A DNA stretch of 64,000 bases, taken from assembly GCA_944323745.1 (NCBI GenBank), contig CALUTQ010000001.1, positions 186,001 through 250,000 of the forward strand, written 5' to 3'. Below the pieces are notes generated by a model. It did not search any database. It was not told the DNA's origin and saw nothing but the letters and a program-made list of their open reading frames with translations. Source of the stretch: Candidatus Avelusimicrobium pullarium (GTDB taxonomy: Bacteria > Elusimicrobiota > Elusimicrobia > Elusimicrobiales > Elusimicrobiaceae). Of the stretch, positions 12,743 to 20,902 are shown in pieces (the first letter of the stretch is position 1; every line of letters starts with the position of its first letter). Made by a program: the position numbers and the translations under genes.

Positions 12743-12776
12743 AAAAGACCGGAGCGCGTAAACGCTCCGGTCTTTT
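12743..12776. terminator. Bidirectional terminator between ligA and TPR gene
   Basis: A perfect 14-bp stem (aaaagaccggagcg / cgctccggtctttt) with a 6-nt loop, flanked by A and T runs so that it works on both strands. It separates two converging operons. Confidence 0.9.
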
Positions 12777-12789
12777 AAAATTTTATCTT

Positions 12790-14130
12790 TTACATTTCAA
12801 GCAGTTGTCCGTCTACGGCACTGCAAAGTTTATAGTTCCAAGCCGCATACGTTTCCGCCAAACTGTTGCGCGGCACCTTAACGGCAGGGTTACTGCGCGA
12901 ACGCAGCAAAGCCACATAGTAGTACGGCGCCCCTTTGCGCGGGTTGGGCACTTCGCCTTCTGGCACAAAATAGCGTCTGTCCGTTTTGGACACGGGCACT
13001 ATATAAAGCCCCATATATTGACGCAAGGTGTCTTCGGAACAATTGGTCTGCTGTTTGACAAAAGCCAGTTCCGCGGGGGAAATTTCCGTATAGCCGCTGT
13101 TTTGCAGCCCCTGCACCAAATTGGCCAGTTTTTCCAAATCTTTTTGGGAAGGAGGCACGCTTTCTTTGGGCAGCAAAAACGCTTTGCGGCCCCGTAAGGC
13201 TTCATTATACACATACATCCCGCTGTCATTAAGGGTGCTATCTTCCAAAAAGATTTTATGGCCTTTCATATCGCGCAAATCAAAAACGTCCTGCGTGCGC
13301 ACGCCCATTTTTTGAAACACGGCCAAGGCATCCTGCCCCACTTGTTTGCGCAAGGCGTTGTAGCCGCTGATGGTAAGCACGTCCCGTTCAAAGCCGGTAC
13401 CTTTAAACAGCGTCACCACATATTCCGAAGGCAGTGCTTTGTACTTGCTTTTTAAATAGTCAATGCCGCCGTGCTGCTCGGCCGAGTGAATGCGCGTAAA
13501 AAGGTCCCTGTCCGTTTGGGAAAGTTCTTTTTTGTCCGGCAAAGCCGCATAGCGCTGTTTCAGCGCGGCCAGCATTTCGTCGTCGGTAAAATAAATCGGC
13601 TCCAGTGCAATCAGGCGGCGGCGGGCAATTTCGTTAAGCGGCTCTACCGACAGGGCCGTTTCATAAAGCTGGGCGGCTTCTTTGGGTTTGCCTTGTTCTT
13701 CCACAATAACGGCTTTGCCCACCAACGAGTTTACGTTAGCGCGGTTATATTCCAGCGATTTTTCGTAATAAGAAAGCGCCTCTTTATTTTTTTGCTGCTT
13801 AAACGCAATATCCCCCAACATAGAATAGGTATACGAACGATACGGGGAAACCCTTTTCATATGACGGATAGCGCTTAAAAAATATTTGCGCGCGGTGGTC
13901 AGCTGGTCCTGCGTTAACGCTACGCCGGCCAGACTCAGCAGGGTTTCTTCATTGGTCGGGTCCAGTTTTAAACAGCGCTCAAAGGTAGCGCCGGCACGCA
14001 CATAGTCGCGGCTGGCAAATTCTTTTTTGCCCTGTTCCTGGCAGGCGGTAAGCTGCGTTTGTCCCCAAACGGAGCCAACCGCACACAAGGTCAGTATGCT
14101 AAAGAGGGATATCGGTTTTACATAACGCAT
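12790..14130 (-). CDS. Exported TPR-repeat protein
   Basis: 446 residues. Signal peptide MRYVKPISLFSILTLCAVGSVWG, then several TPR units between about residues 28 and 195 (for example AGATFERCLKLDPTNEETLL, ALSYYEKSLEYNRANVNSLV, AAQLYETALSVEPLNEIARR). The C-terminal half is non-repetitive and contains two Cys that may form a disulphide. It starts 32 bp inside the squalene/phytoene synthase-family gene, so it belongs to that operon. Periplasmic scaffold or assembly factor is inference. Confidence 0.75.
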   Translation of the reverse strand: MRYVKPISLFSILTLCAVGSVWGQTQLTACQEQGKKEFASRDYVRAGATFERCLKLDPTNEETLLSLAGVALTQDQLTTARKYFLSAIRHMKRVSPYRSYTYSMLGDIAFKQQKNKEALSYYEKSLEYNRANVNSLVGKAVIVEEQGKPKEAAQLYETALSVEPLNEIARRRLIALEPIYFTDDEMLAALKQRYAALPDKKELSQTDRDLFTRIHSAEQHGGIDYLKSKYKALPSEYVVTLFKGTGFERDVLTISGYNALRKQVGQDALAVFQKMGVRTQDVFDLRDMKGHKIFLEDSTLNDSGMYVYNEALRGRKAFLLPKESVPPSQKDLEKLANLVQGLQNSGYTEISPAELAFVKQQTNCSEDTLRQYMGLYIVPVSKTDRRYFVPEGEVPNPRKGAPYYYVALLRSRSNPAVKVPRNSLAETYAAWNYKLCSAVDGQLLEM

Positions 14131-14923
14131 AAATACACTGTATCATTTTTTCCGATTTGGAAAGTTTAACGGGCCGCGTAAACACAAACCCCGTTTTTTC
14201 TATTTTAGCAAGATTTGCGCGATAGACAAAACCCATTACCCGACAAGGCAGCATTTTGCGCGCCGGCAAGGCGTGCATTATTTGATTGGCTTGCGCATAA
14301 AACGCTTTGGAACGCGCGGCCAGTTTGGCCAGCACCTCCGCCAGCAGAAGCGGCTTTTGCTCCTGCAATACATCCGCGCGCGTCAGGCCTGTTTTTTGCA
14401 GCCAATCCGCGGGCAAATACACGCGGCCCAAGCGGGCGTCTTCCTGCACGTCGCGCACGATGTTGGTGGTCTGCACGGCAAACCCCAGCGCCCGGGCCAA
14501 AGCCTCTGCTTGCGGGCCTTTTACACCCAGAATGTCCAGCGTAGCCAAGCCGACAATGCCCGCCACCCGCCATAAATACCATTCCAATTCCTCAAACGTG
14601 GCATAGGTGCGGCCCTTTACGTCCGCCTGCATACCTTCTATCAGCAGCAAAAAACGGTCTTCTTTTAAACCAAAATCTTCTGCCGTTTTTTGCAAATCTT
14701 TCCCCAGCGGGGTTTGCGGTCTGCCGGCAAAAACGTGCCGAACTTCCTGCTGCCATAAGGCCAGCTCGCCCAAGCGGTCGTCCACGTCGGGTTCGTCGGC
14801 AATATCGTCCATCAAACGGCAAAACGCGTAATACGCGGCCAAGGCGGCGCGGCGGCGTTTATCCAAAAACAAAAACGCCGGCCCGAAACTTGATTTTTTA
14901 TAAGCCGCCTTATCTGCGTTCAT
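14099..14923 (-). CDS. Squalene/phytoene synthase family prenyltransferase
   Basis: Head-to-head condensation of two prenyl diphosphates (FPP or GGPP). 274 residues. First aspartate-rich motif DDIADEPD near residue 38; second motif RDVQEDARLGRVYLP near residue 159. The second motif looks closer to CrtB/HpnD than to HpnC (which has a different RD-W pattern). No desaturase, HpnE or cyclase is adjacent, so whether the product is presqualene diphosphate, squalene or phytoene is open. It overlaps coaW by 4 bp and the next TPR gene by 32 bp. Confidence 0.85.
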   Translation of the reverse strand: MNADKAAYKKSSFGPAFLFLDKRRRAALAAYYAFCRLMDDIADEPDVDDRLGELALWQQEVRHVFAGRPQTPLGKDLQKTAEDFGLKEDRFLLLIEGMQADVKGRTYATFEELEWYLWRVAGIVGLATLDILGVKGPQAEALARALGFAVQTTNIVRDVQEDARLGRVYLPADWLQKTGLTRADVLQEQKPLLLAEVLAKLAARSKAFYAQANQIMHALPARKMLPCRVMGFVYRANLAKIEKTGFVFTRPVKLSKSEKMIQCIYALCKTDIPL

Positions 14924-15759
14924 TTGTCCGCTCCGTCCGGATAAATGTAAGACAGGGCCGCGCCCGTCGCCGTGGCATAAATGGAATTGGCCGGAATAAT
15001 AAACTTAATGTTATACAGCCGTTCCACCTGCTTAAACAGCGTTTTGGCGCAAGGCACCGTGCTGAGCGTGCCGGTAATAATGACGTCTTTTACATTATCG
15101 TTGCGGCAGGCAAACACCGCCAGCATACCGATGGTTTGAAACACCATATTCAGCACGCCGCGGGCCAAATCTTCGGCGGTCAGGCCGTCGGCCATTTTGC
15201 CGAAGTTGGACGCCGTTACCTCCGGCGACAGCGTAGCAATATCGCCGGCGCTGATGTCGGAAATATTCAAATCTACTTTTTTCAAATCGCCTTTATGGGC
15301 CAGTTCCACAATCGTTTCAAACGAGCGCGCATTGCACAGCCGCCCGCACAGGCCCAGCACCGTGCCGCCGCCCACGCCCGAACCGCCGATATGGCGTATG
15401 CCGGTTTTGTCGGCGCGCACAAAAGCCGTGCCCGTGCCCATACTGATAATCAGCCCTTCTTTTTTGTTGGACAAGGCCAGCCCGCCTAAGCCGATGGCTT
15501 TAAATTCGTCCACGTGCCGAGCGGGAATGCCGTAAATGTCTTCTTTAAACAAAGAAGCGCCCACGCCGGTAAGCACAATTTGTTTTACCTGCGACAGAGA
15601 GAGTTTGTTTTCGTTTACAAATTTACCCAAAGCCCCGTAGGCCGAGGTCAGCGGGTCGGCCGCTTCCACCATCAGACGGCCAATCAGTTTGCCGTCTTCG
15701 TAATAGCCTACAATTTTGGTGGTGGAACCGCCCACATCTATACCGATAATGACGTTCAT
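14920..15759 (-). CDS. coaW: Type II pantothenate kinase-like protein
   Basis: ATP-dependent phosphorylation of pantothenate, first step of CoA synthesis. 279 residues in the ASKHA fold: phosphate-1 motif IGIDVGGSTTKIVGY at the N terminus, then ISMGTGTAFV and GGSGVGGGTVLGLCG, and a C-terminal adenosine motif ATATGAALSY. This matches the CoaW/eukaryotic-like PanK II family known from staphylococci rather than CoaA or CoaX. ATGA overlaps on both sides show tight coupling to the M3 peptidase and prenyl synthase genes. Confidence 0.85.
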   Translation of the reverse strand: MNVIIGIDVGGSTTKIVGYYEDGKLIGRLMVEAADPLTSAYGALGKFVNENKLSLSQVKQIVLTGVGASLFKEDIYGIPARHVDEFKAIGLGGLALSNKKEGLIISMGTGTAFVRADKTGIRHIGGSGVGGGTVLGLCGRLCNARSFETIVELAHKGDLKKVDLNISDISAGDIATLSPEVTASNFGKMADGLTAEDLARGVLNMVFQTIGMLAVFACRNDNVKDVIITGTLSTVPCAKTLFKQVERLYNIKFIIPANSIYATATGAALSYIYPDGADK

Positions 15760-17795
15760 TTGTTACCCTCCAGCCCGATAGATTTGAGGAAGGGGCCGAT
15801 GTTTTCTTTGCGGCCCAAAAAGTTTTGCACCATTTGTTCTTCTTCCACGGTGCCGCCTTTTTCCAAAATTTCGCGGCGGAATTTTAAACCCGTTTGCGGG
15901 TTAAACACCCCGTTCTTTTCAAACTCACTGAAAAAATCTTCCGCGATGACTTCCGACCACAAATAGCCGTAATAGCCCGCGTCATAGCCGCCCATAATGT
16001 GCCCGAAAGACGCTTGCGGATACGTGCCTTTGGTCAAAGGCAGACCGCGAATTTTTTTGGTCATCGTAAAATAGGTTTTGGTCGTATCGGGCGTTTTCTT
16101 TTTGGTATGAAGGGTCATATCGTATTGGGCAAAAAAGTCCTGCCGCAAATACGCGCCGCCGGCGCCGAAATTTTTGGCGGCAATCATTTTTTTAATCATA
16201 TCGTCGGGCAGCGGCTCGCCGGTTTTGTAATGCTTGCTGATTTTTTTAAGCACCTGCGGGTTCCAGGCCCAGCGTTCCAGCATTTGGCTGGGGGCTTCCA
16301 CAAAGTCCCAGCTGACGCTGGTGCCCGATTGGGCCGAATAACGCGCTTTGGTCAACGCATTGTGCAGCACGTGGCCGAACTCGTGGAATAAGGTACTCAC
16401 TTCGCCGTGTTTTAAAAGAGAGGGTGCATCTTTAGACGGCTTGTTCATATTGGCCACAATGGCCACAAAAGGAACCTGCCAGCTGCCGTCGGCCTTTTGG
16501 TGGCCGTCCACCAAATCAAAACAGGCGGCGTGTTTATATTTGCCTTCGCGCGGATACAAGTCCATATAAAAATAGGCCACCAGTGCGCCGTCCTGCTTAT
16601 TGACGATTTTAAAGGCTTTTACATCGGGGTGCCAGACGGGAATGTCGGCCGGTTCAAACGAGATGCCGAACAATTTGCCGAACAAATCAAGCATTCCGTC
16701 AATTACCACGTCGGAAGGAAAATATTCTTTAATGATTTCGGGGTCTACGTCCAAATTTTCTTTTTTGTATTTATTGCCCCAATACCCGCTTTCATACGGG
16801 TAAAGCGTGCGGCTTTTGGTGCCCTTCTTTTCGTTTTTATAAGCAATTAAATTTTTGTCTTCTTGTTTGGCCATCGGCTTGAGGCGTTTTTCCAAATCTT
16901 TTAAGAAGTCAAACACCTTGTCGGGGTTTTTGGCCATACGGTTTTCCAGCTTCATCTGGGCGTGATTTTTGTAACCCAGCAGCTGCGCAATTTGCTGGCG
17001 CAGGGCCAAGGTTTTTTCCAGCAATTGCACGTTTTCTTGTCCGCCGCGGCGGTTGTATTTAAACTCCAGTTCTTTGCGGGCTTGGTCGCTTTCGGCATTT
17101 AGCATAAAGGGCACATAGTCGGGGTAATCAAGCGTAACGCGGTATTTGCCTTCGGGGGTTTTTTGCAGTTTAGAGATATAATCTTCGCCCAAGCCTTTCA
17201 GCTGGGCTTCGTCCACGTCCAAAAAGTCTTTATATTCCTGAATGTTTTTGTCAAACTGAATAATATATTGGGCTTTTTCTTTATTGAGTTTTTTAAACGT
17301 TTCCAAGTCTTCGTCATTTAAGTCCATACCGCTGTTTTTAAAGCCGATCATCATATCTTTAAGCAGCAAGGCCTGGTCCGGTTCCAACTGCGGTTTGGTG
17401 TCGGCATAGGCTTTAATGGCGCGGTACACGTCGCGGCGGGTGGCCACGTCCACCATATACTGGCTCATTTGCATTTGCAGGGCCAGGGCCGCATCCCGAA
17501 AATTTTTATCCGTAGACACATACGACAAAAAACCGCTCATTCCCAATGCGTCGCCGTATTTTTCAAAGGCACGCTCGTAGCCCATAATTGTGTTGTCAAA
17601 GGTTCTTTCTTCGTCGGGGATAGCCACCAAAGCAGCCAGGTCTTTCTCCAACTCTTTTCGGGCCTGCGCCTCTGCAGGGGCCAAGTCCTCTGCTTTATAA
17701 TCAAAATGCAGCACGCCGTTTCTGAACATATTTTCCATAGCACTCGCTCCCGCCGAAAAGGCTAAAAACAAAATACATATCACTAGTTTTTTCAT
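15756..17795 (-). CDS. M3 family metallopeptidase (thimet oligopeptidase-like), exported
   Basis: Zinc peptidase that degrades oligopeptides. 679 residues; zinc motif HEFGH at about residue 471, with the downstream EAPSQMLERW segment providing the third ligand, as in the M3A family. Unlike the usual cytosolic enzyme it starts with a signal peptide (MKKLVICILFLAFSAGASA), so a periplasmic role in peptide use is inferred. First gene of a four-gene overlapping operon; its promoter region is shared with the divergent arginine decarboxylase gene. Confidence 0.9.
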   Translation of the reverse strand: MKKLVICILFLAFSAGASAMENMFRNGVLHFDYKAEDLAPAEAQARKELEKDLAALVAIPDEERTFDNTIMGYERAFEKYGDALGMSGFLSYVSTDKNFRDAALALQMQMSQYMVDVATRRDVYRAIKAYADTKPQLEPDQALLLKDMMIGFKNSGMDLNDEDLETFKKLNKEKAQYIIQFDKNIQEYKDFLDVDEAQLKGLGEDYISKLQKTPEGKYRVTLDYPDYVPFMLNAESDQARKELEFKYNRRGGQENVQLLEKTLALRQQIAQLLGYKNHAQMKLENRMAKNPDKVFDFLKDLEKRLKPMAKQEDKNLIAYKNEKKGTKSRTLYPYESGYWGNKYKKENLDVDPEIIKEYFPSDVVIDGMLDLFGKLFGISFEPADIPVWHPDVKAFKIVNKQDGALVAYFYMDLYPREGKYKHAACFDLVDGHQKADGSWQVPFVAIVANMNKPSKDAPSLLKHGEVSTLFHEFGHVLHNALTKARYSAQSGTSVSWDFVEAPSQMLERWAWNPQVLKKISKHYKTGEPLPDDMIKKMIAAKNFGAGGAYLRQDFFAQYDMTLHTKKKTPDTTKTYFTMTKKIRGLPLTKGTYPQASFGHIMGGYDAGYYGYLWSEVIAEDFFSEFEKNGVFNPQTGLKFRREILEKGGTVEEEQMVQNFLGRKENIGPFLKSIGLEGNK

Positions 17796-17936: not shown

Positions 17937-18491
17937 ATGTACGAACCGTTTGTACCCAAAGAGATATTCCTGACCAAAGGAATCGGCAGACACAAAGAAA
18001 AACTGGCGAGCTTTGAAGAAGCCTTGCGCGACGCCAAAATCGCCCCGTTTAACATTGTGCCTGTGTCTAGTATTTTTCCCCCGGGATGCAAAACCATCCC
18101 CGTGTCCAAAGGGGTCAGCCAACTGCGCCCGGGACAGATCCTGCACTGCGTCATCAGCCGCAATACCAGCAATGAGTATCGCCGCCTGATTTCCGCTTCT
18201 GTGGGCTTGGCCATCCCTAAAGACGGCAAAAAAACCCACGGCTATATTTCCGAACATCACAGCTTCGGCGAAACGGACAAACAAGCCGGCGATTATGCCG
18301 AAGACTTGGCCGCGTTGATGCTGTCCACCACCCTGGGTATTGAGTTTGACAACAACACTACCTGGGACCAAAAAGAAGAAATCTGGAAAATGAGCGGCAA
18401 AATCGTGCGCACGACCAACATTACGCAGTCTGCTATCTGCGTGGAAGGGTTGTGGACCACGGTTGTGGCTGCTGCCGTGTTTGTAAAATAA
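17937..18491 (+). CDS. pdaD: Pyruvoyl-dependent arginine decarboxylase
   Basis: Converts arginine to agmatine plus CO2. The 184-residue proenzyme cleaves itself between two serines; the site is visible at Ser44-Ser45 in PVSSIFPPG, which gives a small beta chain and an alpha chain with an N-terminal pyruvoyl group. Further family features are the GQILHCVISRN and SVGLAIPKDG segments and the conserved Glu in GYISEHH. It ends 12 bp before the agmatinase gene. The same reaction in many bacteria is done by unrelated PLP enzymes (SpeA). Confidence 0.9.
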   Translation: MYEPFVPKEIFLTKGIGRHKEKLASFEEALRDAKIAPFNIVPVSSIFPPGCKTIPVSKGVSQLRPGQILHCVISRNTSNEYRRLISASVGLAIPKDGKKTHGYISEHHSFGETDKQAGDYAEDLAALMLSTTLGIEFDNNTTWDQKEEIWKMSGKIVRTTNITQSAICVEGLWTTVVAAAVFVK

Positions 18492-18503
18492 TCAGGACTC
18501 GTT

Positions 18504-19391
18504 GTGAGCGATAACGTACAAACCGATAAGTTTATGGGGCTAGAGAGCAAAAACAGCTCTCTGGCCCTTTGTAAATTCGCCGTCGTGCCCGTGCCGTTTG
18601 AAAAAACGGTCTGCTACGGTCACGGTACGGCCAAAGGCCCCGCCGCCGTGATAGAAGCCTCCACCCAAATTGAACTTTGGGACGAAGAAACCAAAACCGA
18701 AACCTGGCAGGAAGGCATACACACCTGTCCGGCGGTTAAATGCACCGGCTCCACGGCTAAAGTGTTTAAAGAAATAGACAAAACCGTGCGGGAAATGATG
18801 ACGCACAAGCAGTGCATTCCCTTTTACGTAGGCGGGGAACACACCGTCACCCAGGCATTGGCCCAGCCGTATATTGAGGCCTACAAAGACCTGAGCATCT
18901 TGCACTTTGACGCCCACGCCGATTTGCGCGAAACCTTTGAAGGCACCCCCAAAAGCCACGCCTGCGCTTTGTATCCGGCGTCCCGCCAGGTACCCGTGGT
19001 GCAGGTGGGCATACGCAGCGTAGCCAGTGAAGAAAAGCAATACTGCAATGCCGGCAAAGTGACCACGTTTTTTATGCACGAAAACCGCGACGTCAACAAA
19101 CTGATTCCGCAAGTGCTTAAAAAACTGACCGACACGGTGTATATTACCATTGATGTGGACGGCTTTGATCCGTCCGTCATTCCGGCCACCGGCACGCCGC
19201 AGCCCGGCGGCTTTGGCTGGTATGAAGCGCTGGACCTGTTCCGCGCCGTCATTGAAAAGAAGAACATCGTGGCCGTGGACGTGGTGGAAGCCTGCCAAAG
19301 AAAGGCAGACCCCATTACGGAATTCAACGTGTCTAAACTTATTTACCGCTTAATGGGCTATTTAACGGTAAAAGCGCAAAAGAAAAAATAA
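18504..19391 (+). CDS. speB: Agmatinase (ureohydrolase family)
   Basis: Hydrolyses agmatine to putrescine and urea. 295 residues with the binuclear manganese motifs GGEHT, FDAHADLRE (from residue 135), and IDVDGFDPS, and a typical C-terminal GYLTVKAQKK. It starts with GTG at 18504; no in-frame ATG fits until residue 11. The adjacent arginine decarboxylase supplies its substrate, which makes agmatinase more likely than arginase. Confidence 0.92.
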   Translation: MSDNVQTDKFMGLESKNSSLALCKFAVVPVPFEKTVCYGHGTAKGPAAVIEASTQIELWDEETKTETWQEGIHTCPAVKCTGSTAKVFKEIDKTVREMMTHKQCIPFYVGGEHTVTQALAQPYIEAYKDLSILHFDAHADLRETFEGTPKSHACALYPASRQVPVVQVGIRSVASEEKQYCNAGKVTTFFMHENRDVNKLIPQVLKKLTDTVYITIDVDGFDPSVIPATGTPQPGGFGWYEALDLFRAVIEKKNIVAVDVVEACQRKADPITEFNVSKLIYRLMGYLTVKAQKKK

Positions 19392-19448: not shown

Positions 19449-20165
19449 TTAGAATTTGTAAGACAGTTTTAACAAAATGGACATATAAGACAAATCTTTT
19501 TTGCCCAGATTGCTGTTGTCAAATTTGTCGTAATCAAAGGTAAACCCGCTGTAACGGGCTTCCGCGCCCCAAAGCCAATTTTCGTTAATGTCTCCTTCTA
19601 TGCCCACGCCCAAATAATAAGAAAAAGAAGTGCTGCTGGCACTGTCGCTCGCATCATCACGCAACAAGCTGCCGCCAGTCATTAATTTGCTTTCTATATC
19701 AAGGGTCGCTTTGGCCGAGGTTAAACCCAAACCAAACGGAACATAGAAACGAATTTTGTTGCCGGGGTTAGCCGTAAAGCGCCCTGCAACCATAAAGCTA
19801 TTGAGGTCCATTTTGCTTTCCAGTTCTTCTTTGCCCCAATTGCGGGCATCAAAGAAAAAAGAACGTTCATAATCCGATTCTTCAAAATTATTGCCCATAT
19901 ATTCCAAGCCGAAGGCAAAATAATCAGAAACGGCGTACATATACTGCACTCCATAAGAGACAGAGCTGTCACCCCAAGCTAATTCTTCATTGCCGACAGA
20001 GTCGCCCAGGACATCTTCAGAATACACACCGGAATCTTGCAAGGGAGCTGCGCCGCCCAAGAAAACGGACACCGTTTGATCTCCGGCTTTTATGCCTTGG
20101 GCATCCACCGCACCGGGGATGACACACATCAGTCCAATAAGTACTGCTAACCACAGTTTCTTCAT
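19449..20165 (-). CDS. Outer-membrane beta-barrel protein (paralogue A)
   Basis: 238 residues with a signal peptide ending at VDAQG. Alternating aromatic/hydrophobic strands and a final LLKLSYKF, an outer-membrane barrel insertion signal, indicate an eight-stranded type barrel. It aligns along its whole length with the next gene (shared blocks WGDSSVSYGVQYMYA, AGRFT-NPG-K, VPFGLGL-AKATLD, YYLGVGIE). A third relative is at 25061. Function unknown; porin or OmpA/OmpW-like surface protein. Confidence 0.75.
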   Translation of the reverse strand: MKKLWLAVLIGLMCVIPGAVDAQGIKAGDQTVSVFLGGAAPLQDSGVYSEDVLGDSVGNEELAWGDSSVSYGVQYMYAVSDYFAFGLEYMGNNFEESDYERSFFFDARNWGKEELESKMDLNSFMVAGRFTANPGNKIRFYVPFGLGLTSAKATLDIESKLMTGGSLLRDDASDSASSTSFSYYLGVGIEGDINENWLWGAEARYSGFTFDYDKFDNSNLGKKDLSYMSILLKLSYKF

Positions 20166-20194
20166 TTGTATCTCCTTGTGAACAACTATTTTTA

Positions 20195-20902
20195 CTAAAA
20201 TTTATAGCCTATTTTAAACAGAACGGAAACATAGTCCAGCGTTTTTTTGTTCCATTCGTCGTTGAATTTGCCGTAATCAAATTCAAAGGCCTGATAACGT
20301 GCCTCCAGCCCCCACAGCCAATGCGGGCTGAAATGGCTTTCTACCCCCAAACCGACATAATAGGTAAACGAAGTGCCGCTCTCGTCCTGACTGCCGGACG
20401 TATGCTGCAGCACACCGCCATTTACTTTATCAAGCGTATAATCCAACGTCGCTTTGGCACGGGCCACCCCCAGCCCAAACGGAATATACACACGCGTCTT
20501 GGCGCCGGGGTTAAAAGTAAACCGCCCCGCCGCCATAAAGTTGTGCACGTCCATATCCGGGTCTATGATTTCTTGTTCTTTGGGGGAACCCCAATAGAAA
20601 TACTCTTCGTAGGTGGCACCGTCAAAACGGTTGCCGTTATATTCGGCGCCAAAAGCAAAATACGGGTTGAGTGCGTATAAATACTGTACGCCGTAGGAAA
20701 CAGATTCGTCCCCCCAGTCCAGCGTATCGGTGTCATTACCCGTTAACTGACTGGTGGTTTTTACGCCGCTGTTACCCAGCGCACCGCCGGCACCAACAAA
20801 ACCCGAGACCATTTGGTCGCCTTTTTGCAAGGTCTGTGCACTTAGCGGCACAGCCCCGATTAGTCCTATTGCCAAACACAGAATCAACATTCGTCTCATC
20901 AT
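20195..20902 (-). CDS. Outer-membrane beta-barrel protein (paralogue B)
   Basis: 235 residues, signal peptide ending PLSAQ, tandem paralogue of the downstream gene, 29 bp apart. Conserved positions include WGDESVSYGVQYLYA, FGAEYNGNRF, WLWGLEARYQAF and the terminal FKIGYKF. The extracellular-loop regions differ most, as expected of duplicated surface proteins. Confidence 0.75.
   Translation of the reverse strand: MMRRMLILCLAIGLIGAVPLSAQTLQKGDQMVSGFVGAGGALGNSGVKTTSQLTGNDTDTLDWGDESVSYGVQYLYALNPYFAFGAEYNGNRFDGATYEEYFYWGSPKEQEIIDPDMDVHNFMAAGRFTFNPGAKTRVYIPFGLGVARAKATLDYTLDKVNGGVLQHTSGSQDESGTSFTYYVGLGVESHFSPHWLWGLEARYQAFEFDYGKFNDEWNKKTLDYVSVLFKIGYKF

What the first reader, a model, noticed from the sequence alone, without database searches (positions are those of the whole stretch)
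14099..17795. Orphan squalene/phytoene synthase-family gene in an operon with pantothenate kinase
Both aspartate-rich motifs are intact but no desaturase, HpnE or cyclase is near. The gene overlaps type II pantothenate kinase and a TPR gene, and follows an exported M3 peptidase. A C30 or C40 lipid in an anaerobic gut-type bacterium would be unexpected; alternatively the enzyme makes another product.
Basis: partly seen in the sequence, partly recalled or inferred. Interest (0 to 1): 0.52.

Follow-up and report, generated by a model that had tools for sequence, protein, structure and literature searches.

The report
Two-gene squalene route in gut Elusimicrobia
A seemingly stray lipid-making gene in a gut bacterium turns out to be half of a conserved pair that probably makes squalene by a little-studied two-enzyme route, without the usual enzyme that would turn squalene into ring-shaped membrane lipids.

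Summary
The gene is real, intact and in a four-gene overlapping run. It is an HpnD-type presqualene diphosphate (PSPP) synthase: best NCBIfam hit HpnD, 251 bits, below the 278.6 cut-off, inside the HpnD clade of relatives' hpnCDE operons. It is not an orphan: 114 kb away lies a second SQS_PSY gene, FdfT type, sister to squalene synthases. The genome shows an FPP synthase but no HpnC, HpnE or squalene-hopene cyclase. The pair recurs across the order. In the class FdfT takes HpnE's place (in 13 of 15 cyclase-bearing genomes without HpnE, 2 of 33 with it). In other phyla 39 of 43 FdfT genomes carry HpnD. Best reading: HpnD makes PSPP, FdfT reduces it to squalene, the apparent end product. PMC5462960 (2017) proposed this FdfT step, untested. 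Against: FdfT lacks the Phe288 that human squalene synthase needs for it; two near-complete genomes have FdfT without HpnD. No chemistry is shown. Pantothenate kinase is a genus-level neighbour; the TPR gene is the conserved one.

The parts
15756..17795 (-). exported M3-family peptidase, first gene of the overlapping run; neighbour only, not part of the squalene proposal
   Evidence: ORF; Pfam Peptidase_M3 472 bits; 4-base overlap with the next gene; absent beside hpnD outside the own genus in the loci read
14920..15759 (-). type II pantothenate kinase; neighbour only
   Evidence: NF009842 235.9 bits, cut-off 234; 4-base overlap with hpnD; not conserved beside hpnD outside the own genus
14099..14923 (-). 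HpnD-type presqualene diphosphate synthase (SQS_PSY), the gene of the finding
   Evidence: Pfam SQS_PSY 225 bits; NCBIfam HpnD 251 bits, cut-off 278.6, HpnC 156 bits; in the clade of operon-borne Elusimicrobiota HpnD, support 0.945
14795..14809 (-). first Asp-rich motif, D39-x3-D43
   Evidence: sequence; invariant in 18 of 18
14438..14452 (-). second Asp-rich motif, D158-x3-D162
   Evidence: sequence; invariant in 18 of 18
12790..14130 (-). exported TPR protein with a conserved C-terminal part; overlaps hpnD by 32 bases; the conserved gene neighbour of hpnD in the order; function unknown
   Evidence: Pfam TPR; beside hpnD in 5 of 5 other family-f1 loci and 6 of 6 f2 loci read; alignment A4
12743..12776 (.). 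symmetrical 14-bp stem, possible terminator between the convergent ligA and this run
   Evidence: pattern match only, 12 such sites found against 10.7 expected

Best explanation
The gene encodes an HpnD-type enzyme that joins two farnesyl diphosphates into presqualene diphosphate (PSPP). A second enzyme encoded elsewhere in the genome, FdfT (G000:C1:315354-316388), takes PSPP and reductively rearranges it to squalene, doing in one step what HpnC and HpnE do in the three-enzyme route. With no squalene-hopene cyclase, squalene or a simple derivative is the apparent end product, most likely a membrane lipid. Shown by sequence: gene identity, the intact motifs, the pair, the absences in the genome, the conservation and the replacement pattern. 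Inferred: the reactions, the hand-over of PSPP, the end product and its role.
For: Window gene: HpnD is the best named family and the tree places it with HpnD of hpnCDE operons. Partner on the same contig. The one PF00348 match is an FPP synthase (333.7 bits, cut-off 275). Conservation: at least two SQS_PSY genes in 107 of 125 genomes of the order, 81 of 88 at 90% completeness or more; FdfT at E 1e-16 or better in 132 of 149. Replacement in the class: among 48 cyclase-bearing genomes FdfT is in 13 of 15 without HpnE and 2 of 33 with HpnE (Fisher p 5e-8, relatedness not corrected); those two (G208, G276) show no HpnC. G202 (86% complete) has SHC, HpnD and FdfT but no HpnC or HpnE found. Other phyla: the second gene is HpnD by HMM in 39 of 43 FdfT-clade genomes, and 29 of the 31 with a strong SHC match have at least two SQS_PSY genes; the sister SQS clade has a lone gene in 6 of 7. 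In L264 HpnD and FdfT lie head to head beside FPP synthase and mevalonate genes. FdfT's predicted fold matches squalene synthases (Z about 33) better than CrtM (25) or HpnC (23). Precedent: Botryococcus SSL-1 makes PSPP and SSL-2 converts it to squalene (PMC4823828, passages).
Against: No product was measured. The position of human Phe288, needed for the second half-reaction (PMC10378455, passages), is A, S, G or T in 73 of 73 FdfT sequences but F, H or Y in 18 of 18 of the sister SQS clade. Two near-complete order genomes, G108 (100%) and G210 (97%), have FdfT and no HpnD found (G108). Three (G128, G104, G118; 94-95%) have neither. In other phyla 4 of 43 FdfT genomes show one SQS_PSY gene only. 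The window gene misses NCBI's HpnD cut-off. HpnE was not searched genome-wide in the 50 named genomes. The proposed NADPH motif VKIRK is not distinctive here: HpnD has similar residues.
Confidence: 0.6

Rival explanations
1. FdfT alone is a complete squalene synthase (FPP to PSPP to squalene), like its sister clade; HpnD is retained for another task or as a flux booster.
For: FdfT has both Asp motifs and the Y73, R77, N215 and flap R52 equivalents in 73 of 73; its sister clade works with a lone gene in 6 of 7 genomes, directly beside SHC in 3 of the 4 loci read; G108 and G210 have FdfT without HpnD found.
Against: HpnD is kept with FdfT in 39 of 43 genomes of other phyla and nearly throughout the order; FdfT has lost the Phe288 equivalent that the SQS clade keeps.
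Confidence: 0.22
2. The pair makes a C30 product other than squalene, such as hydroxysqualene, a botryococcene-like branched hydrocarbon or dehydrosqualene, from PSPP.
For: The altered residue at the human Phe288 position in FdfT; the order shows no cyclase, and the own genome no desaturase, that would demand squalene or dehydrosqualene.
Against: FdfT-bearing genomes without HpnE that keep squalene-hopene cyclase (13 of 15 in this class) need squalene, and the order's FdfT belongs to the same clade.
Confidence: 0.13
3. Decaying remnant of an ancestral hopanoid pathway, still present but without function in gut lineages.
For: The class carries full HpnCDE plus SHC in other families, while the order lacks HpnE and SHC; some order genomes lack one or both genes.
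Against: Both genes stay intact with invariant motifs across two families and small genomes; a remnant would have lost one or other in most.
Confidence: 0.05

Closest known systems
HpnD of the HpnCDE squalene route (Pan et al. 2015, as described in PMC5462960)
   Same: SQS_PSY family, both Asp motifs, best-scoring named family, same clade as operon-borne HpnD in the class
   Different: No HpnC or HpnE found in the genome; gene sits with PanK and a TPR gene instead of the hpn operon; score below NCBI's HpnD cut-off
FdfT of Acidobacteria, Paraburkholderia and Caballeronia (PMC5462960)
   Same: The partner gene belongs to the clade that holds Caballeronia, Paraburkholderia and Acidobacteriaceae proteins (L157, L168, L169, L173); same pattern of HpnD kept with HpnE, or HpnC and HpnE, missing
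   Different: That paper reported it in five acidobacterial species (read); here it spans a whole order without SHC, and recurs in Nitrospira, Rokubacteria and Verrucomicrobia records
Bifunctional squalene synthase (eukaryotes, Methylococcales-type bacteria)
   Same: FdfT is its sister clade (support 0.94) and it is FdfT's best structural match
   Different: FdfT has lost the Phe288 equivalent and travels with HpnD; the SQS clade mostly stands alone
Botryococcus SSL-1 plus SSL-2 or SSL-3
   Same: Two separate enzymes share PSPP synthesis and its reduction (PMC4823828, passages)
   Different: Eukaryotic, from duplications of squalene synthase; here the two come from distinct old clades

Membership tests
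HpnD presqualene diphosphate synthase | SQS_PSY domain with two Asp-rich motifs | tested here: met
HpnD presqualene diphosphate synthase | NCBIfam TIGR03465 score at or above the curated cut-off 278.6 | tested here: not met
   251.2 bits. Same shortfall in an operon-borne HpnD (L030, 260.3) and in 4 of 4 other order members scored; L005, L139 and L122 pass
HpnD presqualene diphosphate synthase | Falls with HpnD and not HpnC or squalene synthase in a tree | tested here: met
   clade of 11 Elusimicrobiota HpnD, support 0.945
HpnD presqualene diphosphate synthase | Makes PSPP from FPP | not testable with these tools
   needs an assay
HpnCDE squalene pathway | HpnC and HpnE in the genome | tested here: not met
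   No HpnE over cut-off; only two SQS_PSY genes, one HpnD-type and one FdfT-type
Hopanoid biosynthesis | squalene-hopene cyclase | tested here: not met
   no PF13249 match in the genome, which is 96.7% complete
C40 carotenoid synthesis (CrtB) | CrtB equivalog score and a GGPP supply | tested here: not met
   CrtB models 123-132 bits against cut-offs 480-550; the only PF00348 enzyme found is FPPsyn over cut-off, CrtE model 310.8 against 460
FdfT (partner gene) | Clade membership with Paraburkholderia, Caballeronia and Acidobacteriaceae FdfT | tested here: met
   FdfT monophyletic, support 0.829; the paper's own sequences were not at hand
Squalene synthase TIGR01559 (partner gene) | score at or above cut-off 286.75 | tested here: not met
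   62 bits; the three SQS-clade members scored also miss it (116-128 bits)

The most novel reading that the evidence does not exclude
HpnD plus FdfT is a third, widespread bacterial route to squalene, in which PSPP made by one enzyme is released and finished by a squalene-synthase relative with a reshaped active site; gut Elusimicrobia run it to a linear C30 hydrocarbon as the end product, without any cyclase.
Probability: 0.5. Interest if true: 0.7.

Novelty: new variant of a known kind. Interest (0 to 1): 0.52.

Why it matters
Textbook bacterial squalene comes from HpnCDE or from one squalene synthase. A conserved HpnD-FdfT pair would be a third arrangement, and genome surveys that ask for hpnC and hpnE would miss it. 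It gives the untested 2017 proposal about FdfT a clean test set: genomes that have the pair and nothing else. It also predicts a linear triterpene in small-genome gut bacteria that show no cyclase.

Tried and rejected
Rejected: PanK-lipid link (PanK beside hpnD only in the own genus). Carotenoid route (no desaturase by PF01593, no CrtB or CrtE score). The idea that the two SQS_PSY genes in f2, 17-20 kb apart, bound a biosynthetic cluster: in the one listed in full (L081) the genes between look like housekeeping genes by eye. VKIRK as an NADPH signature of FdfT: HpnD carries similar residues. Strict mutual exclusion of FdfT and HpnE: broken by G208 and G276, which have both.

Led nowhere: structure of the TPR protein (single sequence, mean pLDDT 47.8); Rfam on the window, no match; papers on Elusimicrobia with squalene, hopanoid or lipid terms, nothing relevant in the listings; Santana-Molina 2020 not held. 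A first HpnE profile included one antisense frame; it was rebuilt, and HpnE neighbours in other phyla are quoted only as weak notes. Greedy ORF picking hid the FdfT frame; later gene lists used codon scores.

Limits: completeness of the 50 named genomes is not given; Fisher tests ignore relatedness; some third or fourth SQS_PSY genes of G338, G340 and G341 were not read; labels such as ligA, dcd, rpoD and GltD-type, and the likely identity of G034 as E. minutum from its size, are by eye or recalled.

Full report
OBSERVATION. The frame 14099-14923 (-) encodes 274 aa with one Pfam domain, SQS_PSY, 225 bits. D39-x3-D43 and D158-x3-D162 are present and invariant in 18 of 18 HpnD-type proteins aligned. 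The gene overlaps PanK by 4 bases and the TPR gene by 32, and PanK overlaps the M3 peptidase by 4. The window lies at G000:C1:186001-250000 of a 1.62-Mb, 2-contig genome, 96.7% complete.

IDENTITY. NCBIfam ranks HpnD first (251.2 bits, cut-off 278.6), then HpnC (156) and CrtB models (123-132, cut-offs 480-550). The shortfall is shared: four other HpnD-type proteins of the order score 239-260 and an operon-borne one (L030) 260.3, while L005, L139 and L122 pass with 282-305. In trees of the class the SQS_PSY proteins fall into HpnC, HpnD and a third clade; the window gene is in HpnD. In the wider tree it groups with HpnD from hpnCDE operons and the order (11 leaves, support 0.945), though the base of HpnD as a whole is weakly supported (0.221 in the smaller tree).

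NOT AN ORPHAN. The genome has a second SQS_PSY gene at C1:315354-316388, 114 kb off on the same contig. It scores low with every named model (HpnD 80, SQS 62, HpnC 59 bits). It belongs to the third clade, which I call FdfT because that clade holds Caballeronia, Paraburkholderia and Acidobacteriaceae proteins (L157, L168, L169, L173) and the Acidobacteria paper PMC5462960 describes fdfT with those relatives (section 16 read; passages). The paper's sequences were not at hand, so the equation is by taxon and clade.

WHAT IS MISSING. No SHC, no HpnE over cut-off, no HpnC (two SQS_PSY genes only). The single PF01593 match is 25 residues in a reductase. The single PF00348 enzyme is FPPsyn over its cut-off (333.7 against 275; CrtE model 310.8 against 460), which speaks for C30 and against C40.

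ACROSS THE PHYLUM. Of 294 genomes, 180 have SQS_PSY, 38 HpnE over cut-off and 48 SHC. The order (families f1 and f2, 125 of the 294) has no HpnE over cut-off and no SHC match, yet 107 of 125 carry at least two SQS_PSY genes: 52 of 58 in the own genus, 18 of 21 in the rest of f1, 37 of 46 in f2; at 90% completeness or more, 81 of 88. A search with the FdfT protein over 149 order genomes gives 144 with a match; I count 132 as FdfT (E 1e-16 or better) and 12 as weak matches that may be HpnD.

REPLACEMENT PATTERN. Among 64 class genomes outside the order, FdfT is in 18 of 23 without HpnE and 2 of 41 with it (three partial HpnE counted as present). Among the 48 with SHC it is 13 of 15 and 2 of 33, Fisher p 5e-8, relatedness not corrected. 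Genera differ in what else remains. g23, most f8 and G269 keep HpnC and HpnD with FdfT, three of the f8 with a short HpnC match. G208 and G276 keep HpnD and HpnE but show no HpnC. G202 keeps only HpnD, FdfT and SHC. FdfT thus seems to make both HpnC and HpnE dispensable. An HpnD-type gene was seen in 18 of the 20 FdfT genomes (G223 judged by score and position only); G086 has a fragment that I did not classify, and G261 (85% complete) has none found.

OTHER PHYLA. I examined 50 of those 80 records. They split into FdfT (43) and a sister SQS clade (7); supports are 0.829, 0.988 and 0.941 for the join. In FdfT genomes 39 of 43 have a second SQS_PSY gene, HpnD by HMM in all 39; 4 have one gene. 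In the SQS clade 6 of 7 have a lone gene; the seventh has a distant second one (60 bits by the HpnD profile). 31 FdfT genomes have SHC at 100 bits or more and 29 of these have at least two SQS_PSY genes; 8 have no SHC match. Several Burkholderiales and one Nitrospira locus have an HpnE-like gene beside HpnD, so FdfT and HpnE can coexist. In L264 (Gammaproteobacteria) HpnD and FdfT are divergent neighbours next to FPP synthase, mevalonate kinase and HMG-CoA reductase.

FdfT ITSELF. The model of L153 FdfT (39-row alignment) has mean pLDDT 94.7. Best structural matches are squalene synthases, Z about 31-33, rmsd 2.3-2.7 over about 300 residues; CrtM follows at about 25 and HpnC at 22.9. The flap Arg52, Tyr73, Arg77 and all four Asp of human SQS are kept in 73 of 73 FdfT. 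The position of Phe288 is A 62, S 7, G 3, T 1 in FdfT and F 15, H 2, Y 1 in the SQS clade. Phe288 mutants of human SQS lose the second half-reaction (PMC10378455, passages). So FdfT is either a reshaped reductase or something else; this is the strongest point against the favoured reading.

MECHANISM. Proposed: FPP to PSPP by HpnD, PSPP to squalene by FdfT. Pan et al. 2015 assigned PSPP synthesis to HpnD, and the 2017 paper proposed that FdfT converts PSPP to squalene and left it untested. Botryococcus SSL-1 and SSL-2 are a working parallel (PMC4823828, passages). The membrane role of squalene in the gut lineage is my inference.

NEIGHBOURS. PanK and M3 flank hpnD in the window and in G019 of the same genus only. 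The TPR gene is beside hpnD in 5 of 5 other f1 loci and 6 of 6 f2 loci read; in f2 L081 one gene that looks like dcd lies between. Its C-terminal part is conserved and its fold was not resolved.

VERDICT. A real gene, wrongly called orphan; a new variant of a known kind. The idea for FdfT is in print (found). I found no paper on it in Elusimicrobia in the listings, in a library that lacks most subscription papers.

Noticed in passing
window 12790-14130 (-): Exported TPR protein with a conserved C-terminal part is the true conserved neighbour of hpnD across the order; role unknown.
   Followed up: partly
L264:232-10997: Gammaproteobacterial cluster: HMG-CoA reductase, mevalonate kinase, FPP synthase, HpnD and FdfT head to head, then an ABC-2 exporter with a HlyD-type protein; no SHC match in that genome.
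   Followed up: partly
L238, L245, L253, L255, L257: Burkholderiales genomes carry an extra HpnD-like SQS_PSY gene (125-149 bits by my HpnD profile) besides the HpnD and FdfT genes.
   Followed up: no
window 17937-19391 (+): Pyruvoyl-dependent arginine decarboxylase next to agmatinase, a putrescine route; the same two genes lie near hpnD in G019.
   Followed up: no
window 19449-20902 (-): Two tandem exported proteins that look like paralogues by eye; the first matches the OMP beta-barrel family.
   Followed up: no
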